Part shown: positions 21,940 through 39,394 of the stretch, in pieces
Layout: every line of letters starts with the position of its first letter
Position numbering within the stretch: position 1 is the first letter of the stretch
Source: Streptomyces sp. JB150
GTDB lineage: Bacteria > Actinomycetota > Actinomycetes > Streptomycetales > Streptomycetaceae
DNA length: 64,000 bases
NCBI RefSeq assembly: GCF_011193355.1
Contig: NZ_CP049780.1
Span: 5,499,803 to 5,563,802 of the forward strand
Direction of reading: 5' to 3'
Program-made: the position numbers and the translations under genes
The notes under the pieces: generated by a model
Database searches by the model: none
What the model was told of the DNA's origin: nothing
What the model saw: only the letters and a program-made list of their open reading frames with translations

Positions 21940-24786
21940 TCAACCGGAGAAGCCGACGTGCGCGAGCCGCAGCGGGCCGCGCAGTCTGACGCGGACGTCG
22001 CGCACGCCGTCCGCGGTGAAGGCGGCGGTCAGACGCGTGTAGTCGTACGGGCCGGACGTCGGGGCGTCGAGCGTCAGGGTCGCCGGCGCGGCGCCCGGGG
22101 CCGGCCACACCTCCACCGTGCCGCCCCCGCCCGCCACCTCGACGCTCACCTGACGGACGCCCGTGCCGAAGTCGCAGGCGCGGTAGAGGAGTTCGGCGAC
22201 GTCCGCCGACGGGGTCACCGCGTCGCCCGACACCTTCGTACGGTCCACGATCCGCGTGCCGCTCTGCTCGTCGAAGTCCACCGCGTCCAGACCGCGGGAC
22301 GCGACCGGGCGCGGCGTCGCGGGCTCGCCGTCCAGGGTCACCGTGGTCCGCAGCCGGATGTCCTCGGAGGACGCCCCGGCCAGCAGCTCGTACGGGCCGG
22401 GCTCCACGCGCCAGTCGCCGCGCGCGACGTCCCAGAACGCGAAGGCGGACAGCGGGACGTCGAAGGACAGCTCCCTGGTCTCGCCCGGCGCCAGGGTGAT
22501 CCGCGCGTGGTCCAGCAGCTGGCGGCGCGGGCGGATCACCGACGGGTCCGCCGCCCGGGCGTAGAGCTGCGCGACCTCGTCCGCCCGGACCGCGCCGGTG
22601 TTGGTGACCCAGAACGTGACGCGCACCGCGCCGTCCGCCGCCCGCGCGGTCAGGTCCGTGTAGGTGAAGCGGGTGTACGACAGGCCGTGGCCGAACGGGA
22701 ACAGCGGCGTGCCCTCGAAGTAGAGGTAGGTCTGGCGGCTGCCGATGACGTCGTAGTCGAGGAGGTCGGGCAGGTCCGCGTCGTCCGCGTACCAGGTCTG
22801 CGGGAGGCGGCCGGCCGGTGAGACGTCGCCGGCCAGGACCCGGGCCAGGGCGGTGCCGGCCGCCTGGCCGCCGTGCGCGGTCCACAGCATCGCGGGCAGC
22901 GCGGCGGGTGCCACCGTGTAGGGGTACGCCGACACCAGCGCCAGCACCGTGCGCGGGTTGGCGGCGCGGGCGGCGCGCAGCAGGCGCTGCTGGTGGCCGG
23001 GGAGCCGCAGCGTCGTACGGTCCTCGGTCTCGCGGCCGTTGAGGTGCGGGTCGTTGCCCGCGACCACCACGACCACGTCCGCGCCGGCGGCGGCCCGCGC
23101 CACCGCGTCCTCGCCGTGCTCGGTGACCTCCAGCGCGAAGACCGCCGGCTCGTCCGGGGAGCCGGGCGCGGCAACCTTCACGCCGTCCGCGGCGACACAG
23201 ACGTGCCGGCCCGTCCCCAGGTGGAGCAGGAGGTGACCGTTCTCGTGGGGTTCCAGGCGGAACGTCTCCTGCACGACCCAGCCGCCGGGCTGGTCCGCGG
23301 AGGCGCGGACGTAACCGTCCTCGGCGACGGAGAGATAGCGGCCGTCGGGGGCGCGCAGCGTCAGCACGTCCTCGCCCCAGTCGATCAGGGCCAGTTCGGT
23401 GCCGTCGGCACCGGTGGTCAGCGGCGGCAGGTCGGTGCGGCCGGCGAGCAGCGCCGGGTCGAGCGCGCCCTCGGCGCCGCGCGCCGGGCCGTCCGCCCGC
23501 TCGGCCGGCGGTACGCGCAGATACGTGCCCTCGGCCGTCCTGAGCCGGATCCGGTCCACGCCTTCCGCGAAGCTCACCCGGTCGGCGCCGAACCGTTCCA
23601 GCAGACCCTCCAGCGGGGTGGAGCGGTGGATCAGCGTGCCGCTGTACCAGTCGAGCTTGCACTCGTCGGCGAGCAGGCCCACGACGGCGATCCGGGTGTC
23701 CGGGGCCAGCGGGAGGAGACCGTCGTTCTTCAGCAGGACGATGGCCTGCTCGGCCGCCTCCTGAGCGAGCGCCCGGTGCTCGGGGGTGTCGAAGGCGCCC
23801 GGGGCGGCGTACGCGCCGGGGCCGTCGAACTCGCCGAGCCGGAAGCGCACCGAGAGCTGGCGGCGGACCGCCGTGTCGATGTCCGCCTCGGTGAGCAGGC
23901 CCTTCGCCAGGGCGCCCCGCAGCCGGGCGGTGATCTTCGATCCGTCCGTGCCGTGGTCGGTGAAGCTGTCCACGCCGGCCAGCAGCGCCGCCGCCGTCGC
24001 CTCCTCGTGGGTGTCGAAGTAGTGCTCGGAGTCGACCAGGTTGGACGGCGCGCCCGCGTCCGAGCAGACCAGCAGCTCCTGGTCGGTCCAGGTGCGCAAC
24101 TGCTCGCGCAGGTACGGGGAGACGTGGTTGGGGCGGCCGTTGACCAGGTTGTACGCCGGCATCACCCCGGCGACCGCGCCCGCCTCGACGGTGTCGCGGA
24201 AGGCCCGCAGGTCGTACTCGTGCAGCACGCGCGGGCGGACCGAGGCCGAGCAGGTGTCCCGGTCCGTCTCGTTGTTGTGGGCGAGCCAGTGCTTGAGGAC
24301 GGGGGCCGTGCGCCAGTACACCGGGTGGTCGCCGCGCAGCCCGCGGGTGTAGGCGGTGGCGATGGCCGAGGTGAGCCGGGGGTCCTCCGAGTAGCCCTCC
24401 TCGTTGCGGCCCCACAGCGGATGGCGCAGCAGGTTCACCGTCGGCGCCCACACGTTGAGCCCGACCCGCTCGTCGCGGGCGCGCATCGCGCGCACCTCCT
24501 GCGAGACCGCCTCGCCGATCCGGCGCACCAGCTCCGGGTTCCATGTCGCGCCGATCCCCACGGCCTGCGGGAACACCGTCGCCGGGCCCATCCAGGCCAC
24601 CCCGTGCAGGGCCTCCTGGCCGGTGCGGAAGGCGGCGATGCCCAGGCGGTCCACGGCGGGCGCGAACTGGTGCAGGAAGGAGATCTTCTCGTCGAGGGTG
24701 AGCCGCGACAGCAGGTCGTCGATGCGCTTCGCGAACGGCAGGTGCCGGTCACGAAAAGGCGGTGCGGGCGGCGTTCGTTCGGTCAC
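21940..24786 (-). CDS. GH3 beta-glucosidase/xylosidase with an inserted fascin-like beta-trefoil domain (cytoplasmic)
   Basis: A 948-residue enzyme without a signal peptide. The GH3 N-terminal barrel (about 20-320) has KHWLAHNNETDRD and the nucleophile Asp243 in LLVCSDAGAP. The second GH3 domain (about 345-720) is interrupted at ~410-555 by a segment with DRIRLRTAEGTYLRV and LTLRAPDGRYLSVAEDGYVR, the repeat pattern of fascin-like beta-trefoils. The second half resumes with VVVAGNDPHLNGRETEDR, where the acid/base Glu is expected. A fibronectin III-like domain (about 740-810) and a C-terminal CBM-like sandwich follow. It probably removes glucose from xyloglucan-derived oligosaccharides inside the cell. 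The GTG at 24786 follows GAGGGGAACCCCAC. The operator at 24823 overlaps its promoter. Confidence 0.9.
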   Translation of the reverse strand: MTERTPPAPPFRDRHLPFAKRIDDLLSRLTLDEKISFLHQFAPAVDRLGIAAFRTGQEALHGVAWMGPATVFPQAVGIGATWNPELVRRIGEAVSQEVRAMRARDERVGLNVWAPTVNLLRHPLWGRNEEGYSEDPRLTSAIATAYTRGLRGDHPVYWRTAPVLKHWLAHNNETDRDTCSASVRPRVLHEYDLRAFRDTVEAGAVAGVMPAYNLVNGRPNHVSPYLREQLRTWTDQELLVCSDAGAPSNLVDSEHYFDTHEEATAAALLAGVDSFTDHGTDGSKITARLRGALAKGLLTEADIDTAVRRQLSVRFRLGEFDGPGAYAAPGAFDTPEHRALAQEAAEQAIVLLKNDGLLPLAPDTRIAVVGLLADECKLDWYSGTLIHRSTPLEGLLERFGADRVSFAEGVDRIRLRTAEGTYLRVPPAERADGPARGAEGALDPALLAGRTDLPPLTTGADGTELALIDWGEDVLTLRAPDGRYLSVAEDGYVRASADQPGGWVVQETFRLEPHENGHLLLHLGTGRHVCVAADGVKVAAPGSPDEPAVFALEVTEHGEDAVARAAAGADVVVVVAGNDPHLNGRETEDRTTLRLPGHQQRLLRAARAANPRTVLALVSAYPYTVAPAALPAMLWTAHGGQAAGTALARVLAGDVSPAGRLPQTWYADDADLPDLLDYDVIGSRQTYLYFEGTPLFPFGHGLSYTRFTYTDLTARAADGAVRVTFWVTNTGAVRADEVAQLYARAADPSVIRPRRQLLDHARITLAPGETRELSFDVPLSAFAFWDVARGDWRVEPGPYELLAGASSEDIRLRTTVTLDGEPATPRPVASRGLDAVDFDEQSGTRIVDRTKVSGDAVTPSADVAELLYRACDFGTGVRQVSVEVAGGGGTVEVWPAPGAAPATLTLDAPTSGPYDYTRLTAAFTADGVRDVRVRLRGPLRLAHVGFSG

Positions 24787-24822
24787 GTGGGGTTCCCCTC
24801 GGAATGGAGCGACGAGGCGCTT

Positions 24823-24836
24823 TCGAAGCGCTTCGA
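24823..24836. promoter_or_regulatory. LacI-type operator before the GH3 gene
   Basis: TCGAAGCGCTTCGA, a perfect 14-bp palindrome 37 bases upstream of the GH3 start. It overlaps the presumed -10 and transcription start, where a repressor would block initiation. Confidence 0.8.
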
Positions 24837-25007: not shown

Positions 25008-25017
25008 CGCAGCAACA

Positions 25018-25031
25018 TCGAAGCGCTTCGA
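25018..25031. promoter_or_regulatory. LacI-type operator before the sugar-import operon
   Basis: TCGAAGCGCTTCGA, identical to the site at 24823, 114 bases before the binding-protein start codon. Confidence 0.8.
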
Positions 25032-25145: not shown

Positions 25146-26834
25146 ATGACGCCGAACGCCGCTTCCGTCTCCTCCGGCCCGAGCCGGAGAAGCTTCCTCG
25201 CCTCCACGGCGGTCGCCACCGCAGCGGTGGCCGGGGGCATGCCGCTGCTCGCCGCCTGTGGCGGCTCGGCGGACGGCGACTCCCGCGAGGGCACCACGTC
25301 GGGCAAGAAGGCGCGCAAGCTGCTGCCGGCGTACGTCGCCAGCAACGTGGTGACCCCGGACATCCCGGCGAAGAACGGCTCCGCCGTCGGCTTCACCCGC
25401 GAGGTCGTGGTCGCCGACCTGAAGACGTCCGTGCCGAAGAAGCTCGGCAAGGGCGGCTCCATCAGGATCATGTCGCCGTTCTGGGGCACCCCGCCGAAGG
25501 GGAACAACGCCTACTACGCGGCGATGAACGACCTGATCGGCGTCGACATCACCTGGCAGAACCAGGACGGCATCACCTACGACGAGAAGCTGGGCGCGGT
25601 CCTCGCCTCCAGTGACATGCCGGACGTCGTGGTCATCCCCAGCTGGAACATGGGCGGCAAGATACCCAGCGCCATCATCAGCAAGTTCGCCGACCTCGGC
25701 CCGTACCTGTCGGGCGACGCGGTGAAGAAGTACCCCAACCTGGCCGCCATCCCCACCGAGGCCTGGCAGTACTCCATCTTCGGCGGCAAGCTGCGCGGCC
25801 TGCCCCAGCCGGCGCCCTCCGTCACCGGCATCGTGCCCTTCTACCGCAAGGACGTCTTCGACAAGGAGGGCTGGCAGCCCCCGCGTTCCGCCGCCGAGTT
25901 CCTGTCCTTCGCCAAGGACGTCACCAACGCCCGCGCGAAGGTGTGGGCCTGCGACGACATGAAGTGGACCGCCTTCAACATCTTCGGCGTGCTGTCCGGC
26001 AGCGAGAAGCCGCTCGGCTGGAACCAGGTCGACGGCAAGCTGGTCTACCGCGTCGAGACCGAGGAGTTCCTCGAGGCGCTGGAGTGGACCCGCAAGCTGT
26101 ACGCCGCGGGCGTGGTCCACCCCGACGCGAAGGCGGCCACCCAGGGCACCGCGGGCGACCGGTTCACCGCCGGCCAGGTCCTGATGTACAACAACAACAT
26201 CTCGGACTGGTGGGGCAAGATGTCCGAACAGGCCGCCCAGAACCCCGAGTTCCGGATCGCCGGCATGGACATCTTCGGCCACGACGGCGGCCAGCCGCGG
26301 CTGTGGGCCGGATCGCCCGCCGGCATCTTCGCCTTCGTCAACAAGAAGGCGTCCAAGGCCGTCATCGAGGACGTGCTCGCCGCCGCGAACGTCACCGCCG
26401 CCCCGTACGGCACCAGGGAGTACATGCTCACCAACTACGGGGTCGAGGGCACGCACTACAGCGTCAAGGACGGCATGCCGCTCAAGAACGACAAGGGCAA
26501 CGCCGAAGTCGTCAACGCCTACGTGATGCTCGCCAGCCCCGCCCCCACCATCGCCCACCCGGAGTTCCCGGACATCACCCGCGAGCAGGTGGAGTGGCAG
26601 CAGCGGATGGGCGCCTTCACCAGCAGGTCCGCCTTCTGGGGCATGCAGATCACCGAGCCCGCCCGCTACACCAACCTCTCCAACGACTTCGAGCAGCTGG
26701 AGGACGACATCGTCCGCGGCCGCAAGAAGATCGGCGACATGCAGCAGGCCGTCTCCGACTGGCGCAAGCAGGGCGGCGACAAGCTGCGGGACTGGTACCA
26801 GAAGCTGCTCGACGACAACGGTTCCGCGCAGTGA
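25146..26834 (+). CDS. Sugar ABC transporter substrate-binding lipoprotein (LplA-like), probably for xyloglucan oligosaccharides
   Basis: A 562-residue exported binding protein. A twin-arginine signal (SRRSFLAS, RR at 14-15) leads to a lipobox LAAC with Cys38 as the anchor. The mature part is the long (over 500 residues) extracellular solute-binding type seen with LplB/YtcP-like permeases, which usually bind larger oligosaccharides. Recognisable pieces are GGSIRIMSPFWGTPPKGNNA and AVLASSDMPDVVVIP. Ligand identity is inferred: every enzyme gene in this operon acts on xyloglucan linkages. The ATG at 25146 is preceded by AAGGGTTGACGCA. It is the first gene of a plus-strand run that continues to 36189 with no terminator visible. 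Confidence 0.9.
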   Translation: MTPNAASVSSGPSRRSFLASTAVATAAVAGGMPLLAACGGSADGDSREGTTSGKKARKLLPAYVASNVVTPDIPAKNGSAVGFTREVVVADLKTSVPKKLGKGGSIRIMSPFWGTPPKGNNAYYAAMNDLIGVDITWQNQDGITYDEKLGAVLASSDMPDVVVIPSWNMGGKIPSAIISKFADLGPYLSGDAVKKYPNLAAIPTEAWQYSIFGGKLRGLPQPAPSVTGIVPFYRKDVFDKEGWQPPRSAAEFLSFAKDVTNARAKVWACDDMKWTAFNIFGVLSGSEKPLGWNQVDGKLVYRVETEEFLEALEWTRKLYAAGVVHPDAKAATQGTAGDRFTAGQVLMYNNNISDWWGKMSEQAAQNPEFRIAGMDIFGHDGGQPRLWAGSPAGIFAFVNKKASKAVIEDVLAAANVTAAPYGTREYMLTNYGVEGTHYSVKDGMPLKNDKGNAEVVNAYVMLASPAPTIAHPEFPDITREQVEWQQRMGAFTSRSAFWGMQITEPARYTNLSNDFEQLEDDIVRGRKKIGDMQQAVSDWRKQGGDKLRDWYQKLLDDNGSAQ

Positions 26835-26860
26835 CCCGGCGCTGAGGCAAGGAGACGGCC

Positions 26861-27895
26861 GTGTCCCACAGCACGGTGCCTCGCAGCAGGGACGAGGCGC
26901 ACACGAGGAAGGCCGCGGCGCGGACGCCGGACACCCGCTCCGGGCGGCGCCCCGCGCGACGGCCCGGCAAGCTGAGCCTGCGGCTCAGGCTGCGCCGCGA
27001 CCGCACGCTGATCCTGATGACCCTGCCGGCCGTCGCGCTGGTCCTGGTCTTCAACTACGTACCGATCCTGGGCAACGTCGTCGCCTTCCAGGAGTACGAC
27101 CCGTACATCAGCGACAACGGGTTCGCCGCCATGCTGGAGAGCCCCTGGGTGGGCCTGGAGCAGTTCCAGCGGATCTTCGAGGACTCGGCGTTCTGGGACG
27201 CCGTACGGAACACGCTGGTGCTGTTCTTCCTCCAGCTCGTGCTGTTCTTCCCCATCCCGATCGCGCTCGCGCTGCTCATCAACAGCGTGATCAGGCCCCG
27301 GGTGCGGGCGGTGTCGCAGGCCATCCTCTACCTGCCGCACTTCTTCTCCTGGGTGCTGGTCATCACCGTCTTCCAGCAGATCTTCGGCGGCGCCGGCATC
27401 ATCGCGCAGACCCTGCGCCGGCACGGGTACGAGGGCTTCGACCTCATGACCGACCCCGGGATCTTCAAGTTCCTGGTGACGGCGGAGGGCGTCTGGAAGG
27501 ACGCGGGCTGGGGCATCATCGTCTTCCTCGCCGCACTCGCCTCCGTCAGCCCGGACCTGTACGAGGCGGCGGCCATGGACGGCGCGGGGCGCTGGCGGCG
27601 CCTGTGGCACGTCACGCTGCCCGCGCTGCGGCCGGTGATCGCGCTGCTGCTGGTGCTGCGGGTCGGCGACGCGCTCACCGTCGGCTTCGAACAGATCCTG
27701 CTGCAGCGCGACGCGGTCGGGCCGGGCGCGGCGGAGGTGCTCGACACCTATGTGTGGTGGAACGGCGTGCGCAACCAGGACTTCAGCTTCGCCGCGGCCG
27801 CGGGCCTGATCAAGGGGCTGGTCAGCGTGGCGCTGGTGCTCGCCGCGAACAAGGTGGCCCACATGATGGGCGAGCAGGGGGTGTACAAGAAGTGA
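26861..27895 (+). CDS. Sugar ABC transporter permease (LplB-like)
   Basis: A 344-residue membrane permease. A basic N-terminal tail of about 45 residues precedes the first span (LILMTLPAVALVLVFNYVPI). The periplasmic loop holds VGLEQFQRIFEDSAFWDAVR, typical of LplB/UgpA-type proteins. The EAA coupling loop is EAAAMDGAGRWRRLWHVTLP, needed to contact the ATPase. The GTG at 26861 follows AAGGAGACGGCC. It would form the channel with the next gene. No ATPase gene lies in the locus; in Streptomyces such importers often share the ATPase MsiK encoded elsewhere. Confidence 0.92.
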   Translation: MSHSTVPRSRDEAHTRKAAARTPDTRSGRRPARRPGKLSLRLRLRRDRTLILMTLPAVALVLVFNYVPILGNVVAFQEYDPYISDNGFAAMLESPWVGLEQFQRIFEDSAFWDAVRNTLVLFFLQLVLFFPIPIALALLINSVIRPRVRAVSQAILYLPHFFSWVLVITVFQQIFGGAGIIAQTLRRHGYEGFDLMTDPGIFKFLVTAEGVWKDAGWGIIVFLAALASVSPDLYEAAAMDGAGRWRRLWHVTLPALRPVIALLLVLRVGDALTVGFEQILLQRDAVGPGAAEVLDTYVWWNGVRNQDFSFAAAAGLIKGLVSVALVLAANKVAHMMGEQGVYKK

Positions 27896-27924
27896 CCGCC
27901 GTCCTGGACCGGAGGCACGAACCC

Positions 27925-28842
27925 GTGGCGGAGAAGGCGCCCCGCTGGTGGCAGGCCCCGCCGCGGCCCGTCTGGGAGGAGCCGCCCGGACGGGCCGGGC
28001 TCGCCGGCAAGGGGATCGTCCTCGCCGGTGCCTGCCTCGCCGTGCTGTTCCCGCTGTGGATCGTCATCGTCACCAGCCTGTCGTCCAAGAAGACCATCAC
28101 CGAGGCCGGCGGTCTGGTGCTGATCCCGAGGGACATCACCTTCGTCGCCTACCAGGAGCTGCTGAGCGGCGGGCAGGTCACCCGCGCCACCCTCGTCAGC
28201 CTGGGCGTCACGCTCGTCGGCACGCTGTTCTCGATGACGGTGTCCGTGCTCGCCGCCTACGGGCTGTCGCGCAGCGGGTCGCTCGGGCACCGCTGGATGC
28301 TGATGACGCTGCTCGCGACGATGTTCTTCGGCGCGGGGCTGATCCCCACGTACCTGCTGGTGCAGTCCCTGGGGCTGACGGACACGTATCTCGCGCTGAT
28401 CCTGCCGAGCGCGGTGAGCGTCTTCAACATCCTGGTGCTGCGCGGGTTCTTCATGAACATCTCGCCCGAACTGATCGACAGCGCGCGGATCGACGGGGCG
28501 GGGGACTGGCGGATCCTGTGGAAGATCGTGCTGCCGCTGTCGCGGGCCGTGGTCGCGGTGATCACGCTGTTCTACGCGGTGGGGTACTGGAGCGCCTGGT
28601 TCAACGCGTCGATCTACCTCACCGACCAGGACATGATGCCGCTGCAGAACGTCATGATCCAGCTGGTGCAGAAGCAGGAGCAGCCGGTGGGGATGAGCCA
28701 GGCCATCAAGACCGGGCAGATCTCGGCGCTGGCCGTGCAGATGGCGGTGATGGTGCTGGCGCTGCTGCCGGTGGCGGTGGTGTCGCCGTTCGTCCAGAAG
28801 CACTTCAAGAAGGGGATGCTGACGGGGGCGGTGAAGGGGTGA
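27925..28842 (+). CDS. Sugar ABC transporter permease (LplC/YtcP-like)
   Basis: A 305-residue permease with six membrane segments, beginning GIVLAGACLAVLFPLWIVIV. Typical features are LSSKKTITEAGGLVLIPRDI in the first external loop and the EAA-type loop ELIDSARIDGAGDWRILWKI followed by VLPLS. The C-terminus SPFVQKHFKKGMLTGAVKG is characteristic of this group. Two starts compete: the GTG at 27925 with GGAGG nine bases upstream, chosen here, and a GTG at 27892 that overlaps the previous stop (GTGA) and would add 11 residues by coupled translation. It completes the importer with the preceding permease and lipoprotein. Confidence 0.92.
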   Translation: MAEKAPRWWQAPPRPVWEEPPGRAGLAGKGIVLAGACLAVLFPLWIVIVTSLSSKKTITEAGGLVLIPRDITFVAYQELLSGGQVTRATLVSLGVTLVGTLFSMTVSVLAAYGLSRSGSLGHRWMLMTLLATMFFGAGLIPTYLLVQSLGLTDTYLALILPSAVSVFNILVLRGFFMNISPELIDSARIDGAGDWRILWKIVLPLSRAVVAVITLFYAVGYWSAWFNASIYLTDQDMMPLQNVMIQLVQKQEQPVGMSQAIKTGQISALAVQMAVMVLALLPVAVVSPFVQKHFKKGMLTGAVKG

Positions 28843-28872
28843 GGTCCTTCTCGCCGTAGGGGTGCGGGTCGT

Positions 28873-28948
28873 CCGGCGGCTGCGGCTTCGTCGTGGTCGG
28901 TCGCGCCCGCGCGGCGGAGCCGCATGTCGAAACAGCCCCGCGCCCCTG
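28873..28948 (+). repeat. Diverged copy of the dispersed GC-rich repeat
   Basis: The segment runs from CCGGCGGCTGCGGCTTCGTC to CAGCCCCGCGCCCCTG and contains GCGCGGCGGAGCCGC in the middle. Its last part matches the repeats at 1541 and 1614 read on the plus strand. It sits between the permease and GH74 genes within the presumed operon. Confidence 0.55.
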
Positions 28949-31203: not shown

Positions 31204-33167
31204 TGCCCCACCTGAACGATGTCACCCGCGGCCGGATCCTCTTCGGCGGCGACTACAACCCCGAGCAGTGGCCCGAGGAGACCTGGCACGAGGACGTCCG
31301 GCTGATGAAGGACGCCGGCGTCAACTCCGTCACCCTCGGCGTCTTCTCCTGGTCCACGCTCGAACCCGAGCCGGGCGCACGGGAGTTCGGCCGGCTGGAC
31401 ACGCTGATGGACCTGATGCACGCGCACGGCATCGGCGTCGTCCTGGCCACCCCCACCGCCTCGCCCCCGCCCTGGATGGGCCGGCTGTACCCCGAGACGC
31501 TGCCCCGCGACGCCGACGGGCACACCGAACACTGGGGCGGGCGCCAGCACTTCTCCCACTCCAGCGCCGTCTACCGGCGCTTCGCCGCCGCCATCACCGA
31601 GGACCTCGCCGCCCGCTACGCCGGCCACCCCGCCCTCACCCTGTGGCACATCAACAACGAGTACTGCACCTTCGACTACGGCGACGAGGCCGCCGAGCGC
31701 TTCCGCCGGTGGCTGCGGGACCGGTACGGCACCCTCGACGCCCTCAACACCGCCTGGGGCACCGCCTTCTGGAGCCAGGGCTACGACACCTGGGACAGCG
31801 TCATCCCGCCCCGCCGTGCCCACTACCTGCACAACCCCGCGCAGGTGCTGGACTTCCGGCGCTTCACCTCCGACATGCTCCTGGAGTGTTACACCGCCGA
31901 GCGGGACATCGTGCGCCGGCACACCCCGCACCTCCCGGTCACCTCCAACTTCATGCCGCTGTGGATCGGCCAGGACGCCTGGCGCTGGGCCGAGGAGGAG
32001 GACGTCGTCTCCGTCGACCTCTATCCGGACCCGCGCGACCCGCTCGGCGCCCAGCACGGCGCCCTCGTCCAGGACCTGACCCGCTCGCAGGCGCGCGGCC
32101 CCTGGATGCTGATGGAACAGGCGGCCGGCCCGGTCAACTGGCGCGGCGTGAACCACCCCAAGCCACGCGGGCTGAACCGGCTCTGGACCCTCCAGGCCGT
32201 GGCCCGCGGCGCGGACGCCGTCTGCTACTTCCAGTGGCGCCAGTCCCGGCAGGGCGCGGAGAAGTTCCACTCCGGCATGGTCAGCCACGCGGGGGAGGAG
32301 GGCCGTACCTTCCAGGAGGTCAAGCGGATCGGCGCGGACCTGCAACGGCTCACCGAGGTCACCGGCACCGACCTCGTGGCCGACGTCGCGATCCTGCACG
32401 ACTGGCACGCCTGGTGGGCCGGCGCGCAGGAGGGCCGGCCGTCCACCCTGGTCGACCACCCGGCCGTGCTGCACGCCTGGCACCGCGCCCTGTGGGAGGC
32501 CCACCTCACCACCGACTTCGCCCACCCCGGGCATGACCTGAGCCGCTACCGCCTGGTCGTCGTCCCGCAGCTGTACCTCCTCACCGACGCCGCGATCGAG
32601 AACCTGCTCGGCTACGTCCGCGCGGGCGGCACCCTCGTGAGCGGCTTCCTCACCGGGATCGCCGACGAGGACGACCGGGTTCGCGCGGGCGGCATGGACG
32701 CCCGGCTGCGCGAGCTGTTCGGCATCCGCGTGCTGCACGAGTGGTGGCCCCTGGACGCGGGGGAGAGCGTCGCGTGCGACGGCTTCCGGGGCACGCTGTG
32801 GTCGGAGGAGATCGAGGCCGCAGACGACGTCACCGAGACCGTCCCCTACCGGGGCGGCGAGCTGGACGGACTGCCCGCCGTGCTGCGCCGGGGCCGCGCC
32901 TGGTACGTCTCCACCCTCCCCGGACCGGACGCCCTGCGCGGCCTGCTCGCCCGCGCCGCCGAAGAGGCCGGCGTCCGCCCGGTCCTGGCGGACCTTCCGG
33001 CCACGGTCGAGGCGGTGCGCCGCGGCGCGCTGCTGTTCGTGCTCAACCACGGCCGCGAGCCGGTGACCGTACCGGTGCCGGGCCGCCACCACGACCTGCT
33101 CACCGGAGCGACGGTGACGGACGAGGTCCGCCTGGACCGCTACGGCGTGGCGGTGCTGCGGCCATGA
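31203..33167 (+). CDS. GH42 beta-galactosidase (cytoplasmic)
   Basis: A 654-residue glycosidase without a signal peptide. GH42 signatures are FGGDYNPEQWPEETWHEDVR at the N-terminus, the acid/base Glu153 in WHINNEYCTF and the nucleophile Glu305 in WMLMEQAAGP. The trimerisation domain (about 395-600) and a C-terminal beta domain follow, giving the usual family length. It should remove terminal beta-galactose, as found on the side chains of xyloglucan oligosaccharides. Its ATG overlaps the GH74 stop (TGATG) and its own stop overlaps the next start (ATGA), so translation of GH74, GH42 and GH95 is coupled. Confidence 0.94.
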   Translation: MPHLNDVTRGRILFGGDYNPEQWPEETWHEDVRLMKDAGVNSVTLGVFSWSTLEPEPGAREFGRLDTLMDLMHAHGIGVVLATPTASPPPWMGRLYPETLPRDADGHTEHWGGRQHFSHSSAVYRRFAAAITEDLAARYAGHPALTLWHINNEYCTFDYGDEAAERFRRWLRDRYGTLDALNTAWGTAFWSQGYDTWDSVIPPRRAHYLHNPAQVLDFRRFTSDMLLECYTAERDIVRRHTPHLPVTSNFMPLWIGQDAWRWAEEEDVVSVDLYPDPRDPLGAQHGALVQDLTRSQARGPWMLMEQAAGPVNWRGVNHPKPRGLNRLWTLQAVARGADAVCYFQWRQSRQGAEKFHSGMVSHAGEEGRTFQEVKRIGADLQRLTEVTGTDLVADVAILHDWHAWWAGAQEGRPSTLVDHPAVLHAWHRALWEAHLTTDFAHPGHDLSRYRLVVVPQLYLLTDAAIENLLGYVRAGGTLVSGFLTGIADEDDRVRAGGMDARLRELFGIRVLHEWWPLDAGESVACDGFRGTLWSEEIEAADDVTETVPYRGGELDGLPAVLRRGRAWYVSTLPGPDALRGLLARAAEEAGVRPVLADLPATVEAVRRGALLFVLNHGREPVTVPVPGRHHDLLTGATVTDEVRLDRYGVAVLRP

Positions 33168-35440
33168 ACGGTACGCCCGTGAACCCGCACCCGGCCGGGG
33201 CCGCCCCGGCCGTGGGCGGCACGCATCCCCGTAACGAGGCCCCCGCCACCGGCCCCGTGCACGGCACCTGGGAGCCCCGGCCCGCCGGCCGCTGGGAGGA
33301 CGCCTTCCTCAGCGGCAACGGCCGTCACGGCGCCCTCGTGTTCGGCGACTCGAACGACGACCGGGTCATCGTCACCCACCACACCCTCGTCCGCCCCGCC
33401 GGAGACGAACGCCACCGCCGCCCGCCCCGGCTCGCCGCCGCCCTCCCCGCCCTCCAGGACCGGCTGCTCGCGGGCGACCTCACCGCCGCCGAGACCTTCA
33501 CCGACGGCCGCCCGCTGCACTGGGTGCGCTCCTTCCACCCGGCCTTCCAGACCCGCCTGCGCGCCGCCACCGCCCCGGACGGCCCCTACCGGCGGTCCGT
33601 CGACTTCACCACCGGCGAGGTCACCGCCGTCCACGGCGAGCGGACCAGCCGCGTCTTCGTCTCCCGCGCCGACGACGTCATCGTCCAGCGCGTCACCGCC
33701 CCCCACCTCACACTCGGCCTCTCCCTCGACCCCCGCCTCCCCGGCGCCCCGCACGGGCTCGGGGTCGGGGAGGGCGCCGTGCTCACCGCCGACGGCGCCC
33801 TGCTCGGCCTGCGCGTGCGCTACCCGGGCAGCGACCTCGCGTACACCGGGGTCACCCTGGCCGTCGTCGAGGGCGGCACGACCCGGCTGGCGCCGCCCGG
33901 CGCGCGCATCGAGGGCGCGACGGCACTGACGCTCCTCACCCGGGTGCGCCGGCACACCGGAGAGCTGGACCTGGTCGCCGTGGGCCGCGCCCTGCGGGAA
34001 CTCCTCGACGGCAGGTCGTACGACGACCTCCTCGCCCGGCACACCGCCGGGCACCGCACCGCCTACACCCGCGTCACCCTCGACCTCGCCGCCGACCCGG
34101 CCGAGCGCGCCCTGCCCGGCTCCGAGCTGCTGAGCCGCCCGCGCAGCACCGCCCTCCTGGAGCGGCTGTTCGCCGCGGGCCGCTATCACCTGCTGTCCGC
34201 GAGCGGCATGTTCCCGCCCCGCCTGACCGGCCTGTGGACCGGCGACTGGGACACCGCCTGGGCGGGCGCCTTCACCAACGACGCCAACCTCAACCTCCAG
34301 ACCGCCTCCGCCGCGGCGGGCGCCCTGCCCGAAGTGACCGAGGCCCACGCTGCGCTGGTCCACGGGCAGCTCGCCGACTGGCGGGACAACGCCCGCGCCG
34401 TCTTCGGCACCCGCGGCGCCGTCGCCCCCGCGCACACCGACGGCGAGTCCGGGCACGCCTACCACTTCAGCCGCGCATACCCCCTGCACCTGTGGACCGC
34501 CGGCGCCGACTGGCTGCTCAAACCGCTCGTCGACCACGACGAGACCCACGGCACCCGCGACCCGCGCACCGCCGCCGCGCTCGCCGAAGTCGCCCGCTTC
34601 TACGAGGACTTCCTCACCCGCACCGACGCCGACGGCCACCTGGTGATCGTCCCCTCCTACTCACCGGAGAACCGCCCCGCCAACGGCAGCTGGGGCGCCC
34701 TCAACGCGGCCATGGACCTCTCCGCCGCCCGGCACGCCCTGCGCACCGCGGCCGCCTACCACCCGGGACCCGACGCCGACCGCTGGCGCGCCCTCGCCGA
34801 CCGGCTCCCGCCCCACCGGATCAACGCCGACGGCGCCCTCGCCGAATGGGCCTGGCCCGGCCTCACGGACTCCTACGACCACCGCCACCTCAGCCACCTC
34901 TACGGCGTGTGGCCCCTGGACGAGATCAACCCCTACGACACCCCCGCCCTGGCCGAGGCCGCCCACCGGGCGCTCGAACTGCGCGGCGCCGAGAACGACT
35001 CCGCGCACGGCCATCTGCACCACGCCCTGGTCGCCGCCCGCCTGCGGGACGCCGGCCGGGTCGCGCACGCGCTCGACCAGGTCCTCGACGGCGACTTCTT
35101 CCACACCTCCCTGATGAGCGCCCACTACCCCCGCCGCGACGTCTACAACGCGGACGCCGCGCACACCCTGCCCGCCGTGCTAATCGAGATGCTCGTCCAG
35201 TCGACGCCCGGCCGGCTCGTGCTGCTCCCCGCCCTCCCGGACCGGCTCGGCGAGGGCGCGCTGCGCGGTGTGCGCACCCGGTTCGGCGCGCGGATCGACC
35301 TCACGTGGGGCCGCACCGGGACGACCGCCGTCGTACGGCCCTCCCGCACCACCCGCGTGGAACTCAGGACCCCCTCCGGCACCGGTCACCTCGACCTGAC
35401 CGCCGGAGAGGACCGCGTCCTCGACCTGGGGACGCGGTGA
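33164..35440 (+). CDS. GH95 alpha-L-fucosidase or alpha-L-galactosidase (cytoplasmic)
   Basis: A 758-residue protein without a signal peptide. GH95 landmarks are RWEDAFLSGNGRHGALVFG near the start, FTNDANLNLQTA where the catalytic Asn pair lies in related enzymes, the acid Glu in VPSYSPENRPANGSWG, SHLYGVWPLDEINPY, and the closing NADAAHTLPAVLIEMLVQST followed by LLPALPDRLGEG. GH95 enzymes remove alpha-1,2-linked L-fucose or L-galactose from beta-galactose, which caps fucosylated xyloglucan side chains. Several positions differ from the classical fucosidase consensus (DGNFGGT is here ADAAHTL), so the exact sugar is uncertain. The start codon overlaps the GH42 stop (ATGA at 33164). Confidence 0.88.
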   Translation: MNGTPVNPHPAGAAPAVGGTHPRNEAPATGPVHGTWEPRPAGRWEDAFLSGNGRHGALVFGDSNDDRVIVTHHTLVRPAGDERHRRPPRLAAALPALQDRLLAGDLTAAETFTDGRPLHWVRSFHPAFQTRLRAATAPDGPYRRSVDFTTGEVTAVHGERTSRVFVSRADDVIVQRVTAPHLTLGLSLDPRLPGAPHGLGVGEGAVLTADGALLGLRVRYPGSDLAYTGVTLAVVEGGTTRLAPPGARIEGATALTLLTRVRRHTGELDLVAVGRALRELLDGRSYDDLLARHTAGHRTAYTRVTLDLAADPAERALPGSELLSRPRSTALLERLFAAGRYHLLSASGMFPPRLTGLWTGDWDTAWAGAFTNDANLNLQTASAAAGALPEVTEAHAALVHGQLADWRDNARAVFGTRGAVAPAHTDGESGHAYHFSRAYPLHLWTAGADWLLKPLVDHDETHGTRDPRTAAALAEVARFYEDFLTRTDADGHLVIVPSYSPENRPANGSWGALNAAMDLSAARHALRTAAAYHPGPDADRWRALADRLPPHRINADGALAEWAWPGLTDSYDHRHLSHLYGVWPLDEINPYDTPALAEAAHRALELRGAENDSAHGHLHHALVAARLRDAGRVAHALDQVLDGDFFHTSLMSAHYPRRDVYNADAAHTLPAVLIEMLVQSTPGRLVLLPALPDRLGEGALRGVRTRFGARIDLTWGRTGTTAVVRPSRTTRVELRTPSGTGHLDLTAGEDRVLDLGTR

Positions 35441-35475
35441 CCCCCACATTTCCCCCACCCATGGAAGGGACACCC

Positions 35476-36189
35476 ATGGAAGCACGCACCCTGAGCAGGA
35501 TCACCAAGGCCCTGCTGGCCCCGGCCCTCGCCCTCGGCGCCACCGTCGGCCTCGCCTCCGCCCCCGCGCACGCCGCGGTCTGGAACTCCTGCGACCAGTG
35601 GGGCAACACCACGCTGAACGGCTACACCCTGTACAACAACATCTGGGGCTCCGGCGCCGGCAGCCAGTGCGTCTGGGCCAACTCCGGCACCAACTGGGGC
35701 GTCTGGGCCGACCACCCCAACACCGGGGGCATCAAGTCGTACCCCAACGCCAAGAAGGTGATCAACAAGCCGATCACCTCCATCACCTCGCTGACCAGCA
35801 GCTACAACGTCACCGTCCCGTCGTCCGGCGCGTACAACACGTCGTACGACATCTGGGACACCGACTACGACTACGAGATCATGCTGTGGGTCAACCACAA
35901 CGGCGCCGTCGGCCCGCTCGGCACCTCCCAGGGCACCGTCACCCTCGGCGGCCACACCTGGAACGTCTACAAGGGCAGCAACGGCCACAACGAGGTCTTC
36001 TCGTTCCTGCGCACCTCGGACTCCAGCTCCGGCACGGTGAACATCCTGCCGATCCTGAAGTGGATCAAGGACACCAAGAAGTGGATGGGCAACGAGACCA
36101 TCGGTGACGTCCAGTTCGGCTACGAGATCACCTCGTCCGCGGGCGGCCTGAACTTCACCACCAACAACCTCACCGTCAGCGGCGGCTGA
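35476..36189 (+). CDS. Secreted GH12 endoglucanase/xyloglucanase
   Basis: A 237-residue secreted enzyme. Residues 1-33 form a Sec signal peptide ending ASAPAHA. The mature protein is a single GH12 beta-jelly-roll, opening WNSCDQWGNTTLNGYTLYNN, with the nucleophile Glu134 in YDYEIMLWVNH and the acid/base Glu217 in VQFGYEITSSAG. Many GH12 enzymes cut the xyloglucan backbone, and the genes around it favour that over plain cellulose. There is no binding module or linker. The ATG at 35476 has GAAGGG six bases upstream; an in-frame ATG at 35461 would place that ribosome site inside the gene. It is last in the plus-strand operon, followed by a terminator. Confidence 0.94.
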   Translation: MEARTLSRITKALLAPALALGATVGLASAPAHAAVWNSCDQWGNTTLNGYTLYNNIWGSGAGSQCVWANSGTNWGVWADHPNTGGIKSYPNAKKVINKPITSITSLTSSYNVTVPSSGAYNTSYDIWDTDYDYEIMLWVNHNGAVGPLGTSQGTVTLGGHTWNVYKGSNGHNEVFSFLRTSDSSSGTVNILPILKWIKDTKKWMGNETIGDVQFGYEITSSAGGLNFTTNNLTVSGG

Positions 36190-36195
36190 CCGGCG

Positions 36196-36235
36196 GGGCG
36201 GGGGCAGCCGGTCGCCTCTCCGGCCGCCCCCGCCC
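36196..36235. terminator. Bidirectional terminator between the GH12 and GH31 genes
   Basis: GGGCGGGGGCAGCCGG (36196-36211) pairs with CCGGCCGCCCCCGCCC (36220-36235) with one mismatch and an eight-base loop, inside the 53-base gap between two convergent stops. Confidence 0.75.
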
Positions 36236-36242
36236 GACGCGG

Positions 36243-38285
36243 CTACTCCGCCACGGGCAGCCGCGCCCCGTCCCGCAGGAACAGCGGGATGCGGTCCAGC
36301 GGGGCCTCGACCGTCACGGCCGTACCCCCCTCGTACGTCGCACCGGTCCACGCGTCCGTCCAGACGGCGCCCGCCGGCAGGTAGGCCGTGCGGGCCGTGG
36401 CGCCCGCGGTCAGCACCGGGGCGACCAGCAGATCCCCGCCCAGGAGATAGGCGTCGTCCACCGACCACGCCGTCTGGTCCTGCGGGAACTCCAGGAACAG
36501 CGGCCGCATCACCGGCAGCCCTTCCTCGTGGGCCTCGCGCATCACCTCCAGCACATACGGCTTCAGCCGCTCGCGCAGCCGCAGATAGCGCTCCATGATC
36601 GCGCCGGCCTCCTCGCCGTACGACCACACCTCGTTCGGGCCGCCGGTCATCTCCGGGCCGAGCGGCATCCCCGGGTCGCGGAAGCCGTGCAGCCGCATCA
36701 GCGGGGACAGCGCGCCGAACTGGAACCAGCGGACCATCACCTCGCGGTACGCCGCGTCGTCCGGGTCGCCGCCGTGGAAGCCGCCGATGTCGGTGTTCCA
36801 CCACGGGATGCCCGACAGGGCCGTGTTGAGCCCGGCGGCGATCTGGCGGCGCAGGGTGGCGAAGTCGGTGCCGATGTCACCGGACCACAGGGCCGCGCCG
36901 TAGCGCTGACTGCCCGCCCACGCCGAGCGGTTGAGGGTGATGATCTCGTCCTCGCCGGCCGCCGTCAGGCCCTCGTGGAAGGCGCGGGCGTTCTCCGCCG
37001 GATAGATGTTGCCGACCTCGAGGCCCGGCCCCGCCCAGTACCGCAGGTTCTCCTGGAAGCCCGGCTTCAGCTCCGGCTCGCAGGCGTCCAGCCAGAACGC
37101 CTTGATGCCGTACGGCACCACGTAGTTGTCGCGGATCCGGGACCACACGAACTCGCGCGCCTCGGGGTTGGTCGCGTCGTAGAAGGCCACCTGGACCGTG
37201 GAGGCGACCTCCTTGTCCGGCCAGTCGGCGTGCGCCAGCGGGCCGTACTGGGTGCCGATGAAGTAGCCGCGCTGCTCCATCGGCGCGTGGTTCTCGCTCA
37301 GCGGGGACACCGACGGCCACACCGAGACGACCAGCTTGATGCCCAGCTCGTCCAGCTCGCGCACCATCGCCGCCGGGTCCGGCCACTCCTTCGGGTCGAA
37401 CTTCCACTCGCCGAGGTGCGTCCAGTGGAAGAAGTCGCACACGATCACGTCGATCGGCAGGTTGCGGCGCTTGTACTCCCGCGCCACGGCGAGCAGTTCG
37501 TCCTGCGTGCGGTAGCGCAGCTTGCACTGCCAGAAGCCCGCCGCCCACGCGGGCAGCATCGGGGTGCGGCCGGTGACCGCGCTGTAGCGGCGCTGGGCGT
37601 CGGCCGGGGCGCCCGCGGTGATCCAGTAGTCGATCTGGCGGGCCGAGTCCGCCACCCAGCGGGTGCCGTTGTGCGCCAGCTCCACCCGGCCGATCGCCGG
37701 GTTGTTCCACAGCAGGGTGTAGCCGCGGCTGGAGGTCAGGACCGGGACGGAGACCTCGGCGTTGCGCTGGACCAGGTCCAGCACCAGGCCCTTCTGGTCG
37801 AGCCGGCCGTGCTGGTGCTGGCCGAGGCCGTAGAGCTTCTCGTCGTCGTACGCGGCGAACCGCTGCTCCAGCCGGTGGTAGCCGTTGCCGACCGCCGTGT
37901 ACAGCCGCGGGCCCGGCCACCAGAAGTGGGCGCGCTCCTCGGCGAGCAGTTCCCCGCCGTCGCCGGTGCGCTCGAAGCGGACCTGGCCCTCGGCGCTCAC
38001 CCGCACGGTCAGCGCGCCCACCGTCAGCCGGCCCTCGCCGTCACCGGTCTTGACGGTGGACTCGGTGGGCGGGGCCTCGGGGAGCAGGGCGCCCGGCAGC
38101 CCGTCGAGGACCGGGCCGCCCAGCCGGGCGCGCACCCGGACCGCGTCCGGACCCCACGGCTCGATCCGCAGCGTCTCCTGACGGCCGCTCCACTCCAGCG
38201 CGCCGCCCTGCTCGCGGAACGTGCCGACGGTGGGGGAGGACTGCGCGAGGCTGACCTTGGGCTGTATTTCGGCGGGCTGAATCAC
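36243..38285 (-). CDS. GH31 alpha-glycosidase, probable alpha-xylosidase (cytoplasmic)
   Basis: A 680-residue GH31 enzyme without a signal peptide. The nucleophile Asp400 is in IKAFWLDACEPEL and the acid/base Asp470 in LWSGDIGTDF. KLYGLGQHQHGRLDQKG, WQCKLRYRTQDELLAV and FFHWTHLGEWKFD are close to bacterial alpha-xylosidases, which release xylose from the non-reducing end of xyloglucan oligosaccharides. This is usually the first exo step before beta-glucosidase can act. The GTG at 38285 is chosen because AGGAG lies eight bases upstream; an ATG at 38306 would add seven residues. It is separated from the lacI-type gene by 95 bases with no operator or terminator, so the two are probably one transcript. 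Confidence 0.92.
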   Translation of the reverse strand: MIQPAEIQPKVSLAQSSPTVGTFREQGGALEWSGRQETLRIEPWGPDAVRVRARLGGPVLDGLPGALLPEAPPTESTVKTGDGEGRLTVGALTVRVSAEGQVRFERTGDGGELLAEERAHFWWPGPRLYTAVGNGYHRLEQRFAAYDDEKLYGLGQHQHGRLDQKGLVLDLVQRNAEVSVPVLTSSRGYTLLWNNPAIGRVELAHNGTRWVADSARQIDYWITAGAPADAQRRYSAVTGRTPMLPAWAAGFWQCKLRYRTQDELLAVAREYKRRNLPIDVIVCDFFHWTHLGEWKFDPKEWPDPAAMVRELDELGIKLVVSVWPSVSPLSENHAPMEQRGYFIGTQYGPLAHADWPDKEVASTVQVAFYDATNPEAREFVWSRIRDNYVVPYGIKAFWLDACEPELKPGFQENLRYWAGPGLEVGNIYPAENARAFHEGLTAAGEDEIITLNRSAWAGSQRYGAALWSGDIGTDFATLRRQIAAGLNTALSGIPWWNTDIGGFHGGDPDDAAYREVMVRWFQFGALSPLMRLHGFRDPGMPLGPEMTGGPNEVWSYGEEAGAIMERYLRLRERLKPYVLEVMREAHEEGLPVMRPLFLEFPQDQTAWSVDDAYLLGGDLLVAPVLTAGATARTAYLPAGAVWTDAWTGATYEGGTAVTVEAPLDRIPLFLRDGARLPVAE

Positions 38286-38380
38286 GTGGCGTGCTCCTGA
38301 AGACATGGGGGTGCCCCGGGAAGGGCCAGGACGAGGTGGTCCGCGCAGGACCGGGCGGGTGGGGCCGGGGTGAGGAGGCG

Positions 38381-39394
38381 TCAGGAGAGGGCGGGCGCCG
38401 GTCCCGTGCTCGCGCGGACCGTCAGCTCGGGCGCGATCAGCACGACCTCGTCGCTGCCGCGCCCGTCCAGCTTGGCGACCAGGTGCTCCACGGCGTACCG
38501 GCCCATCTCCTGGGCCGGGATGGCGACCGAGGTCAGCCGCACCGAGGCCTGCACGGCGACCTGGTCCGGGCAGATCGCCACCACCGAGACGTCCTCCGGC
38601 ACCGCCCGGCCCTGCTGGCGCAGCAGGGCGAGCAGCGGTTCGACCGCCGACTCGTTCTGCACCACGAACCCGGTGGTCGCCGGACGCTCGTCGAAGATGC
38701 GGGCGAGCGTCGCCGCCATCGCGTCGTACCCGCCCTCGCACGGGCGGTGCAGCACCCGCAGCCCCAGCTCGCGGGCGCGGCCGCGCAGCCCCTGCAGGGT
38801 GCGTTCGGCGAAGCCGGTGTGCCGTTCGTAGACCGCCGGGGCCTCGCCGATGACGGCGATGTCCCGGTGCCCGAGCGAGGCCAGATGCTCCACGCACAGC
38901 GCGCCCGTCGCCGTGAAATCGAGGTCCACGCAGGTCAGACCGGTGGTGTCGGAGGGCAGACCGATCAGCACCGACGGCTGGCCGGCGCCGCGCAGCAGCG
39001 GCAGCCGCTCGTCCTCCAGCTCGACGTCCATGAGGATCATCGCGTCGGCGAGCCCGCTGCCGGTGACCCGGCGCACCGCGTCGGGGCCCTCCTCGCCGGT
39101 GAGCAGCAGGACGTCGTAGCCGTGGACGCGGGCGGTGGTGGCCACCGCGATGGCGATCTCCATCATCACCGGCACGTACATGTCGGTGCGCAGCGGGATC
39201 ATCAGCGCGATGATGTTCGACCGGCTGCTGGCCAGGGCGCGGGCACCGGCGTTCGGGTGGTACCCCAGCTCCCGGATGCTCTGCTCGACCCGCTGCCGGG
39301 TGGTCGCCGAGATGGACCGCTTGCCGCTGAGGACATAGCTCACCGTGCTCGCCGAGACTCCGGCGTGCTGGGCGACCTCGGCGAGGGTGACCAT
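38381..39394 (-). CDS. LacI-family transcriptional repressor, probable regulator of the xyloglucan locus
   Basis: A 337-residue LacI/GalR protein. The DNA-binding head (1-55) reads VTLAEVAQHAGVSASTVSYV then LSGKRSIS, with the hinge NAGARALAS. The periplasmic-binding-protein-like core shows SNIIALMIPL, RRVTGSGLADAMILMD, ASLGHRDIAVIGE and VPEDVSVVAICP, as expected for a sugar-responsive repressor. The ATG at 39394 follows TTGGAGAGCGG. One imperfect operator lies 17 bases upstream and a perfect 20-bp one about 100 bases upstream, implying control of its own gene. Identical boxes stand before the GH3 gene and the importer operon. The inducer is probably a xyloglucan breakdown product, which is inference. 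Confidence 0.93.
   Translation of the reverse strand: MVTLAEVAQHAGVSASTVSYVLSGKRSISATTRQRVEQSIRELGYHPNAGARALASSRSNIIALMIPLRTDMYVPVMMEIAIAVATTARVHGYDVLLLTGEEGPDAVRRVTGSGLADAMILMDVELEDERLPLLRGAGQPSVLIGLPSDTTGLTCVDLDFTATGALCVEHLASLGHRDIAVIGEAPAVYERHTGFAERTLQGLRGRARELGLRVLHRPCEGGYDAMAATLARIFDERPATTGFVVQNESAVEPLLALLRQQGRAVPEDVSVVAICPDQVAVQASVRLTSVAIPAQEMGRYAVEHLVAKLDGRGSDEVVLIAPELTVRASTGPAPALS

What the first reader, a model, noticed from the sequence alone, without database searches (positions are those of the whole stretch)
21940..39394. A complete candidate xyloglucan-utilisation locus
Seen: GH74 and GH12 with signal peptides, a lipoprotein and two permeases, and GH31, GH42, GH95 and GH3 without signal peptides, all between 21940 and 38285, with a lacI-type gene at the end. 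Known: GH74 and GH12 enzymes cut the xyloglucan backbone, and alpha-xylosidase (GH31), beta-galactosidase (GH42), alpha-fucosidase/galactosidase (GH95) and beta-glucosidase (GH3) match each linkage of its oligosaccharides. Inference: secreted enzymes cut the polymer, the importer takes up the oligosaccharides, and the cytoplasm finishes them. Such loci are well known in Bacteroides and Cellvibrio; a Gram-positive, importer-based version of this make-up is much less described. From memory, a GH74 from a related Streptomyces region has been characterised, but not, to my knowledge, the whole locus.
Basis: partly seen in the sequence, partly recalled or inferred. Interest (0 to 1): 0.85.

Follow-up and report, generated by a model that had tools for sequence, protein, structure and literature searches.

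The report
Streptomyces xyloglucan uptake locus and regulon
A soil Streptomyces carries one coherent gene set that looks built to cut, import and digest the plant-wall polymer xyloglucan, and a DNA switch sequence shared with related species appears to tie it to other xyloglucan-type genes; the plan is known from other Gram-positive bacteria, but this version and its switch look new.

Summary
The genes are as described, and the xyloglucan reading is well supported but inferred. GH74 and GH12 carry export signals; a lipoprotein and two permeases form a CUT1 importer; GH42, GH95, GH31 and GH3 lack signals. In 58 Streptomyces loci holding both GH3 and lacI, order and strands match in 58, and all ten genes are present in 52.

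New here: a perfect 14-bp palindrome, TCGAAGCGCTTCGA, lies twice between GH3 and the lipoprotein gene and once upstream of lacI, with a variant beside lacI. It recurs in 77 of 77 and 57 of 57 measurable relatives. In the window genome its only other perfect copy precedes a lone, 50%-identical lacI paralogue; in relatives that paralogue follows an alpha-xylosidase gene, with or without an ABC importer, starting at the same palindrome. In six fully searched genomes, 34 of 40 sites off the main locus precede sugar genes or further copies of the locus.

This is a new variant: locus-encoded secreted enzymes, GH95, and a LacI switch in place of a two-component system. GH3 and GH95 specificities are the weakest links.

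The parts
21940..24786 (-). GH3 exo-beta-glycosidase (proposed beta-glucosidase), no signal peptide, inserted Fascin-type domain and C-terminal CBM6
   Evidence: Pfam; candidate catalytic motifs SDAGAP D243 and GRETEDR E586/E588 invariant in 77 of 77 rows (roles recalled); own operator at 24823
24823..24836 (.). operator 1, TCGAAGCGCTTCGA, 36 bp from the GH3 start codon
   Evidence: 5 matches at up to 2 mismatches in the window, 0 of 100 shuffles reach 5; two perfect sites in 77 of 77 measurable relatives
25018..25031 (.). operator 2, TCGAAGCGCTTCGA, 114 bp upstream of the lipoprotein gene
25146..26834 (+). lipoprotein solute-binding protein of a CUT1 importer, large oligosaccharide-binding type
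26861..27895 (+). ABC permease 1
   Evidence: PF00528
27892..28842 (+). ABC permease 2
   Evidence: PF00528
28924..31203 (+). GH74 endo-xyloglucanase, exported (Tat-like signal by eye)
   Evidence: 17 distinct PDB sequences at E <= 5e-95, 12 of them with xyloglucan in the molecule name; N-terminus
31203..33167 (+). GH42 beta-galactosidase, no signal peptide
   Evidence: E153 and E305 motifs invariant in 78 of 78 rows (roles recalled)
33164..35440 (+). GH95, proposed alpha-L-fucosidase (alpha-L-galactosidase not excluded), no signal peptide
35476..36189 (+). GH12 endoglucanase/xyloglucanase, exported (Sec-like signal by eye)
   Evidence: PF01670; E134 and E217 invariant in 75 of 75 rows
36190..36242 (.). 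strong hairpin between convergent GH12 and GH31, possible two-way terminator without a T tail
   Evidence: (window 36175-36250), z -3.1 and -3.5
36243..38306 (-). GH31 alpha-xylosidase (MeXyl31 type), no signal peptide
   Evidence: best PDB match MeXyl31 5zn6, E 1.7e-204; D407 and D477 motifs invariant in 55 of 55 rows (roles recalled)
38381..39394 (-). LacI-family repressor gene; with GH31 it probably forms a second operon
   Evidence: PF00356 and PF13377
39411..39424 (.). operator 3, variant GTGAAGCGCTTCGA, 16 bp upstream of lacI
   Evidence: same variant in 57 of 57 measurable relatives
39500..39513 (.). operator 4, TCGAAGCGCTTCGA, 105 bp upstream of lacI

Best explanation
It is a LacI-controlled xyloglucan utilisation locus of Streptomyces that works by extracellular cutting, import of large oligosaccharides and cytoplasmic digestion. 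Proposed steps: secreted GH74 and GH12 cut the backbone; the lipoprotein and two permeases, powered by a shared MsiK/UgpC-type ATPase encoded elsewhere, import XXXG-type oligosaccharides; inside, GH95 and GH42 strip fucose (or L-galactose) and galactose, and GH31 and GH3 then alternate to remove xylose and glucose. The locus LacI binds four palindromes at the two promoter regions and shuts off three transcripts (GH3; SBP to GH12; lacI-GH31) until an imported sugar releases it. Shown by computation: gene families, order, conservation, operator distribution, SBP fold neighbours. Inferred: substrates, order of reactions, repression, inducer, ATPase.
For: Families and best structural relatives point to xyloglucan: GH31 to alpha-xylosidase MeXyl31, GH74 to enzymes mostly named xyloglucanases (12 of 17), GH95 best to 7kmq, taken to be the Xanthomonas enzyme of PMC8245568 (entry-to-enzyme link recalled). 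Ten genes in fixed order and strand: 58 of 58 loci with both end genes; all ten in 52 of 58. Two perfect operators between GH3 and SBP in 77 of 77 measurable loci of 80, although that region varies from 270 to 401 bp; a perfect plus a variant site before lacI in 57 of 57 measurable loci of 80; one site with at most 1 mismatch elsewhere in 1.64 Mb, itself upstream of a truncated SBP gene. The reversed 14-mer, as control, occurs once in those 80 loci. In 200 Streptomyces genomes (window genome included) the palindrome occurs at least twice in 96 of 96 genomes with the SBP and not at all in 80 of 104 without it. In six genomes searched fully (55 sites; reversed control 0 in each), 34 of the 40 sites off the main locus precede sugar genes or further copies of the locus (Pfam). 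Four genomes whose locus lacks GH31 each carry a YicI-type GH31 outside the fetched stretch, with operator variants at the 5' end of one such gene in 4 of 4. The YicI-type GH31 of a relative's operator-linked operon passes NCBI's alpha-xylosidase equivalog cut-off, 1251 vs 606 bits. The SBP's nearest folds are those that PMC12710961 lists for the A. bescii xyloglucan SBP. One UgpC-subfamily ATPase passes its cut-off in the genome.
Confidence: 0.87

Rival explanations
1. The locus serves a broader set of beta-glucans or cello-oligosaccharides, with xyloglucan as one of several substrates, and the LacI senses cellobiose like CebR.
For: R. cellulolyticum GH74 also acts on carboxymethylcellulose (PMC4780118), and A. 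bescii Athe_2052 also binds cellotriose and cellotetraose (PMC12710961). Relatives place a GH5-CBM46 gene under the same operator.
Against: The locus holds side-chain enzymes (GH31, GH42, GH95) with no use on cellulose. The CebR box TGGGAGCGCTCCCA is absent from the window even with 2 mismatches. The operator tracks alpha-xylosidase genes across genomes.
Confidence: 0.08
2. The locus serves another xylose/galactose/fucose-bearing plant glycan, such as highly substituted xylan, with GH95 as an alpha-L-galactosidase and GH3 as a beta-xylosidase.
For: A GH95 alpha-L-galactosidase and a GH31 alpha-xylosidase act on corn xylan in Bacteroides ovatus (PMC4491172, passages). The top NCBIfam hits of GH3 are beta-xylosidase models, all below cut-off.
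Against: No xylanase family was found among the ten locus proteins; the only backbone enzymes are GH74 and GH12, and 12 of the 17 close PDB relatives of the GH74 carry xyloglucan in their names.
Confidence: 0.04

Closest known systems
Ruminiclostridium cellulolyticum xyloglucan-oligosaccharide locus Ccel_2451-2458 (PMC4780118; abstract, Results, Discussion and passages read)
   Same: CUT1 SBP and two permeases without a local ATPase; cytoplasmic GH42, GH31 and GH3; GH74 cuts outside; oligosaccharides imported whole
   Different: Two-component sensor plus AraC-like regulator in the cluster, here LacI; xyloglucanases are cellulosomal, GH74 at a separate locus (Ccel_1207), here GH74 and GH12 are in the locus; GH95 is in the operon here
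Anaerocellum bescii Athe_2052-2054 xyloglucan importer (PMC12710961, preprint; abstract, Results part 1 of 2 and Discussion read)
   Same: SBP with AlgQ/FusA-like fold, two permeases, no ATPase nearby, GH31 in the locus
   Different: GH74 and GH42 lie elsewhere and the fucosidase candidate only near; no LacI circuit described in the parts read
Xanthomonas XyGUL (PMC8245568, passages read)
   Same: GH74, GH31 and GH95 together in one locus
   Different: TonB-dependent transporters, GH35 in place of GH42, a CE20 acetylesterase; no ABC importer
CebR cellulose regulon of Streptomyces (PMC4898821, PMC5332605, passages read)
   Same: LacI-family repressor with a 14-bp palindrome sharing the AGCGCT core, controlling dispersed plant-wall enzymes
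   Different: Different outer bases (TGGGAGCGCTCCCA against TCGAAGCGCTTCGA); CebR box absent from this window

Membership tests
Importer-based Gram-positive xyloglucan utilisation locus | SBP plus two CUT1 permeases, no ATPase in the locus | tested here: met
   UgpC-type ATPase elsewhere in the genome
Importer-based Gram-positive xyloglucan utilisation locus | cytoplasmic GH31, beta-galactosidase and GH3 encoded with the importer | tested here: met
   families; no signal peptide by inspection; location itself untested
Importer-based Gram-positive xyloglucan utilisation locus | SBP in the fold group of the A. bescii xyloglucan SBP (AlgQ1/2, FusA) | tested here: inconclusive
Importer-based Gram-positive xyloglucan utilisation locus | SBP binds XXXG-type oligosaccharides; locus induced by xyloglucan | not testable with these tools
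   needs calorimetry and transcripts
R. cellulolyticum Xyg-type cluster in the strict sense | sensor plus AraC-like two-component regulator in the cluster | tested here: not met
   the only regulator gene among the ten in 21940-39394 is LacI-type
XyGUL of Bacteroidetes/Xanthomonas | SusC/SusD or TonB-dependent outer-membrane import | tested here: not met
   no such Pfam family among the ten locus proteins; ABC importer instead
GH95 alpha-1,2-L-fucosidase | catalytic Asn pair, acid Glu and Asp of the GH95 site (XacAfc95 N397/N399, D690; PMC8245568, PMC4491172) | tested here: inconclusive
   positions mapped by me on the alignment: E502 and N375 invariant in 68 of 68 rows, D664 in 67 of 68; the first Asn is Asp (D373) in 59 of 68 and Asn in 9; 56 Asp, 63 Asn and 1 unread among the 120 listed of 1583 homologues
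GH31 alpha-xylosidase | full-length similarity to a characterised alpha-xylosidase with catalytic Asp motifs kept | tested here: met
   MeXyl31 E 1.7e-204; WLDACEPE and WSGDI motifs in 55 of 55 rows. Below the YicI-type equivalog cut-off, 255 vs 606: a different GH31 branch
LacI-family repressor with operator | N-terminal LacI HTH, C-terminal sugar-binding domain, palindromic sites at its own and target promoters | tested here: met
   DNA binding itself untested
CebR regulon | TGGGAGCGCTCCCA box | tested here: not met
   0 matches in the window with up to 2 mismatches

The most novel reading that the evidence does not exclude
Two LacI paralogues that read one operator (TCGAAGCGCTTCGA) run a Streptomyces xyloglucan regulon of two layers: the large-oligosaccharide importer locus seen here, and in many relatives an alpha-xyloside operon (YicI-type alpha-xylosidase, LacI-B, often a second importer), plus dispersed GH74, GH5-CBM46, GH12, GH42, GH36, GH43/GH51, GH3 and esterase genes. 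The window genome appears to have lost the second operon but keeps LacI-B and its operator as a stand-alone regulator.
Probability: 0.6. Interest if true: 0.62.

Novelty: new variant of a known kind. Interest (0 to 1): 0.5.

Why it matters
Streptomycetes are major aerobic plant-litter degraders, yet I found no account of their xyloglucan locus, importer and regulator as a whole in my searches of the held library, which lacks most subscription journals. One 14-bp operator predicts much of the xyloglucan gene set genome by genome, including esterases and arabinofuranosidases that would fit acetylated and arabinosylated xyloglucan. That makes substrate range, inducer and two-repressor control directly testable, and gives a sequence marker for likely xyloglucan use in soil genomes.

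Tried and rejected
CebR control was considered and dropped: no CebR box in the window or within 1.5 kb of the second GH74. A second GH74 as a regulon member in this genome was rejected: no operator there. The idea that Asp at GH95 position 373 defines a new subfamily was weakened when 63 of 120 listed homologues kept Asn. Sigma-70-type promoter scans of both operator regions found nothing, which is not informative for Streptomyces. Sequence search of the SBP alone against PDB found nothing; profile and fold searches did. No row named as A. bescii Athe_2052 appeared in the parts that were shown, so no direct comparison was made. Sites inside a DHDPS-like gene (7 regions by tblastn; Pfam checked for one) look like coding coincidence and count against a perfect regulon call. 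Genes inserted between GH12 and GH31 or lacI in many relatives were listed but not identified, apart from GH36-like hits in 11 of 80 loci.
Full report
WHAT IS THERE. The window lies at 5,499,803-5,563,802 of a 7.32-Mb single-contig genome; the 80 relatives kept by the GH74 scan (80 of 188 confirmed) are all labelled Streptomyces. Ten genes span 21940-39394. GH3 (24786-21940, minus) stands divergent to an operon-like run: lipoprotein SBP, two permeases, GH74, GH42, GH95, GH12 (25146-36189, plus; three of the joints overlap). GH31 and lacI (39394-36243, minus) close the locus, convergent with GH12 across a strong hairpin. GH74 and the SBP have RR-type N-termini, the SBP with a lipobox, GH12 a Sec-like one; GH3, GH42, GH95 and GH31 have none. 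This was judged by eye; no signal-peptide program was run.

CONSERVATION. Of the 80 relatives, 58 held both end genes GH3 and lacI; the others run off contig or stretch ends or have long insertions. All 58 keep the order and strands, 52 of 58 have all ten genes, 4 lack GH31, 1 lacks GH95 and 1 lacks GH12. GH95 is absent between GH42 and GH12 in 10 of 75 loci where both are present. In wider samples the SBP was found at E <= 1e-20 in 15 of 396 genomes of the phylum, from 3 of 245 genera, and at E <= 1e-150 in 96 of 200 Streptomyces genomes. SBP homologues in three genomes of other genera (31-36% identity by tblastn) sit with permeases but with none of the locus enzymes and no operator within the 20 kb read. 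So the full locus was seen only in Streptomyces.

THE SWITCH. A perfect palindrome, TCGAAGCGCTTCGA, occurs at 24823, 25018 and 39500, with a variant GTGAAGCGCTTCGA at 39411; the window has 5 matches at up to 2 mismatches (the fifth, at 24719, is inside GH3) and no shuffle of 100 reached 5. In relatives, 77 of 77 GH3/SBP regions that could be measured have exactly two perfect sites, although the region varies from 270 to 401 bp, and 57 of 57 measurable lacI upstream regions have one perfect and one variant site. One site with at most one mismatch was found elsewhere in 1.64 Mb, and it lies upstream of a truncated SBP gene (L086). The reversed 14-mer occurs once in the same 80 loci. In the whole window genome the form KYGAAGCGCTTCRM occurs at five places, four in the locus and one before another lacI gene, its first base 48 bp before the start codon (reversed control 1). 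A search with one mismatch adds one site at 966,060 near genes of no sugar role (reversed control 2). That other lacI gene is the nearest paralogue of the locus lacI, 50% identical; the next are 38% or less. In 200 genomes, the window genome included, 96 of 96 with the SBP have two or more perfect sites (mean 4.3), while 80 of 104 without it have none; the reversed control gives 0 or 1 per listed genome.

WHAT ELSE CARRIES THE SWITCH. I fetched ten regions in relatives that hold both the palindrome and this paralogue, here LacI-B. In all ten the palindrome is followed by a YicI-type GH31 and then lacI-B; in five of them an SBP and a permease come first, and in one (L153) the GH31 is only a short remnant (in L196 lacI-B lies just past the stretch, placed). 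In two, a GH3 follows lacI-B. With the window genome, where only lacI-B is left, this reads as stepwise loss. Against this, genome G524 has GH31 and lacI-B with no perfect site on that contig, and 26 of 30 LacI-B loci show none within 1.5 kb, as expected if it lies further upstream but not checked for all. The GH31 passes the NCBI alpha-xylosidase equivalog cut-off, 1251 against 606 bits. LacI-B at E < 1e-100 is present in 51 of 200 genomes, 42 of them with the locus SBP; the association (Fisher odds ratio 8.2) is not corrected for relatedness.

For six genomes with many sites I listed all 55 perfect sites. Fifteen belong to the main locus. Of the other 40, 34 precede sugar genes: 13 are further or split copies of this locus, and 21 stand before GH3, GH74, GH5-CBM46, GH12, GH42, YicI-type GH31, GH36, GH43, GH51, esterase or ABC genes. 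Three of these 21 are weak: two distant GH12-like hits (32-33%, more than 500 bp away; Pfam found no family in the gene called there) and one PHB-type esterase; a GH43 lies 643 bp away. Four sites lie inside a DHDPS-like gene and two had no sugar target, one beside a transpeptidase/transglycosylase gene and one beside a BTAD-type regulator (Pfam). Reference proteins for one search came partly from the same regions; their families rest on Pfam. A further 21 sites in 20 regions picked by me gave 16 before sugar genes, 3 in DHDPS-like genes and 2 without a sugar target.

A NATURAL TEST. Four relatives lack GH31 in the locus (L012, L029, L059, L080). All four carry a YicI-type GH31 (62-66% to the reference) outside the stretch I hold, and in all four one such gene has two operator variants at its 5' end; one of the four has a second YicI-type gene without them. 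In another genome the YicI-type gene sits beside the locus GH3 (L204). The window genome has no YicI-type GH31, its two hits being the locus GH31 and a distant one at 29-32%. So the two GH31 types seem to stand in for each other under the same switch, which argues that the alpha-xylosidase step is what the regulon needs.

WEAK POINTS. The GH3 has a Fascin-type insert and a CBM6, odd for a cytoplasmic beta-glucosidase; no NCBIfam equivalog fits and its best PDB matches are split between beta-glucosidase and beta-xylosidase. In GH95 one of the two Asn residues held to activate water (PMC8245568, PMC4491172, passages) is Asp here and in 58 of 67 locus relatives, but Asn in 63 of 120 listed database homologues.

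PRIOR WORK. The importer-based plan is published (PMC4780118; PMC12710961). A Streptomyces avermitilis GH74 has been characterised (recalled; not seen in the library, and one search listed only five other papers holding that phrase, not opened for it). I found no account of the whole Streptomyces locus, its SBP or its operator in searches. The text search for the operator core found 27 papers, 20 listed; the two Streptomyces papers among the 20 hold a CebR-box variant (PMC5332605) and a predicted Rex site before a sugar permease gene (PMC5355995), neither about xyloglucan. Subscription journals are mostly missing from that library.

Noticed in passing
L006:7669-8736 (G000:C1:2971668-2972735): Lone lacI paralogue (LacI-B) with the locus operator before it, near smpB; its hinge (PHA-ARSAYGGRTN) departs from the PHAGARALASSRSN-like form of relatives, so it may be decaying after loss of its alpha-xylosidase operon.
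   Followed up: partly
L014, L015, L054, L077, L081 among ten loci: GH95 is missing between GH42 and GH12 in 10 of 75 loci, several of them from potato-scab species or their kin; phylogeny not controlled.
   Followed up: no
L175, L176, L177, L185: Some relatives hold a second copy of the importer locus or part of it with its own operator pair, the SBP about 65% identical to the window's where it was scored.
   Followed up: partly
L157, L194: Operator pairs near GH3, GH43 and GH51 genes, which would fit arabinosylated xyloglucan.
   Followed up: no
L165:2950-4062, L189:4228-5007: BTAD (SARP-type) regulator genes at the operator in two genomes.
   Followed up: no
L163, L166, L167, L170, L173, L181, L183: The same 14-mer inside a DHDPS-like coding sequence; probably coding coincidence, but recurrent (Pfam for L166).
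   Followed up: partly
window 21940-24786; L177, L184, L190: GH3 with CBM6, an inserted domain and no signal peptide in the window; operator-linked GH3 genes of relatives show GH3, Fn3-like and CBM6 too, with a similarly long GH3_C match; their inserts were not examined.
   Followed up: partly
11 of 80 loci, between GH12 and GH31/lacI: GH36-like genes in the insertion downstream of GH12, in loci where GH31 was not reached.
   Followed up: no
window 47842-47929: ARAGORN tRNA-Gly call inside a long reading frame (47264-48964), probably false.
   Followed up: no
window 15456-17639: 727-aa reading frame with no Pfam match at 1e-3.
   Followed up: no
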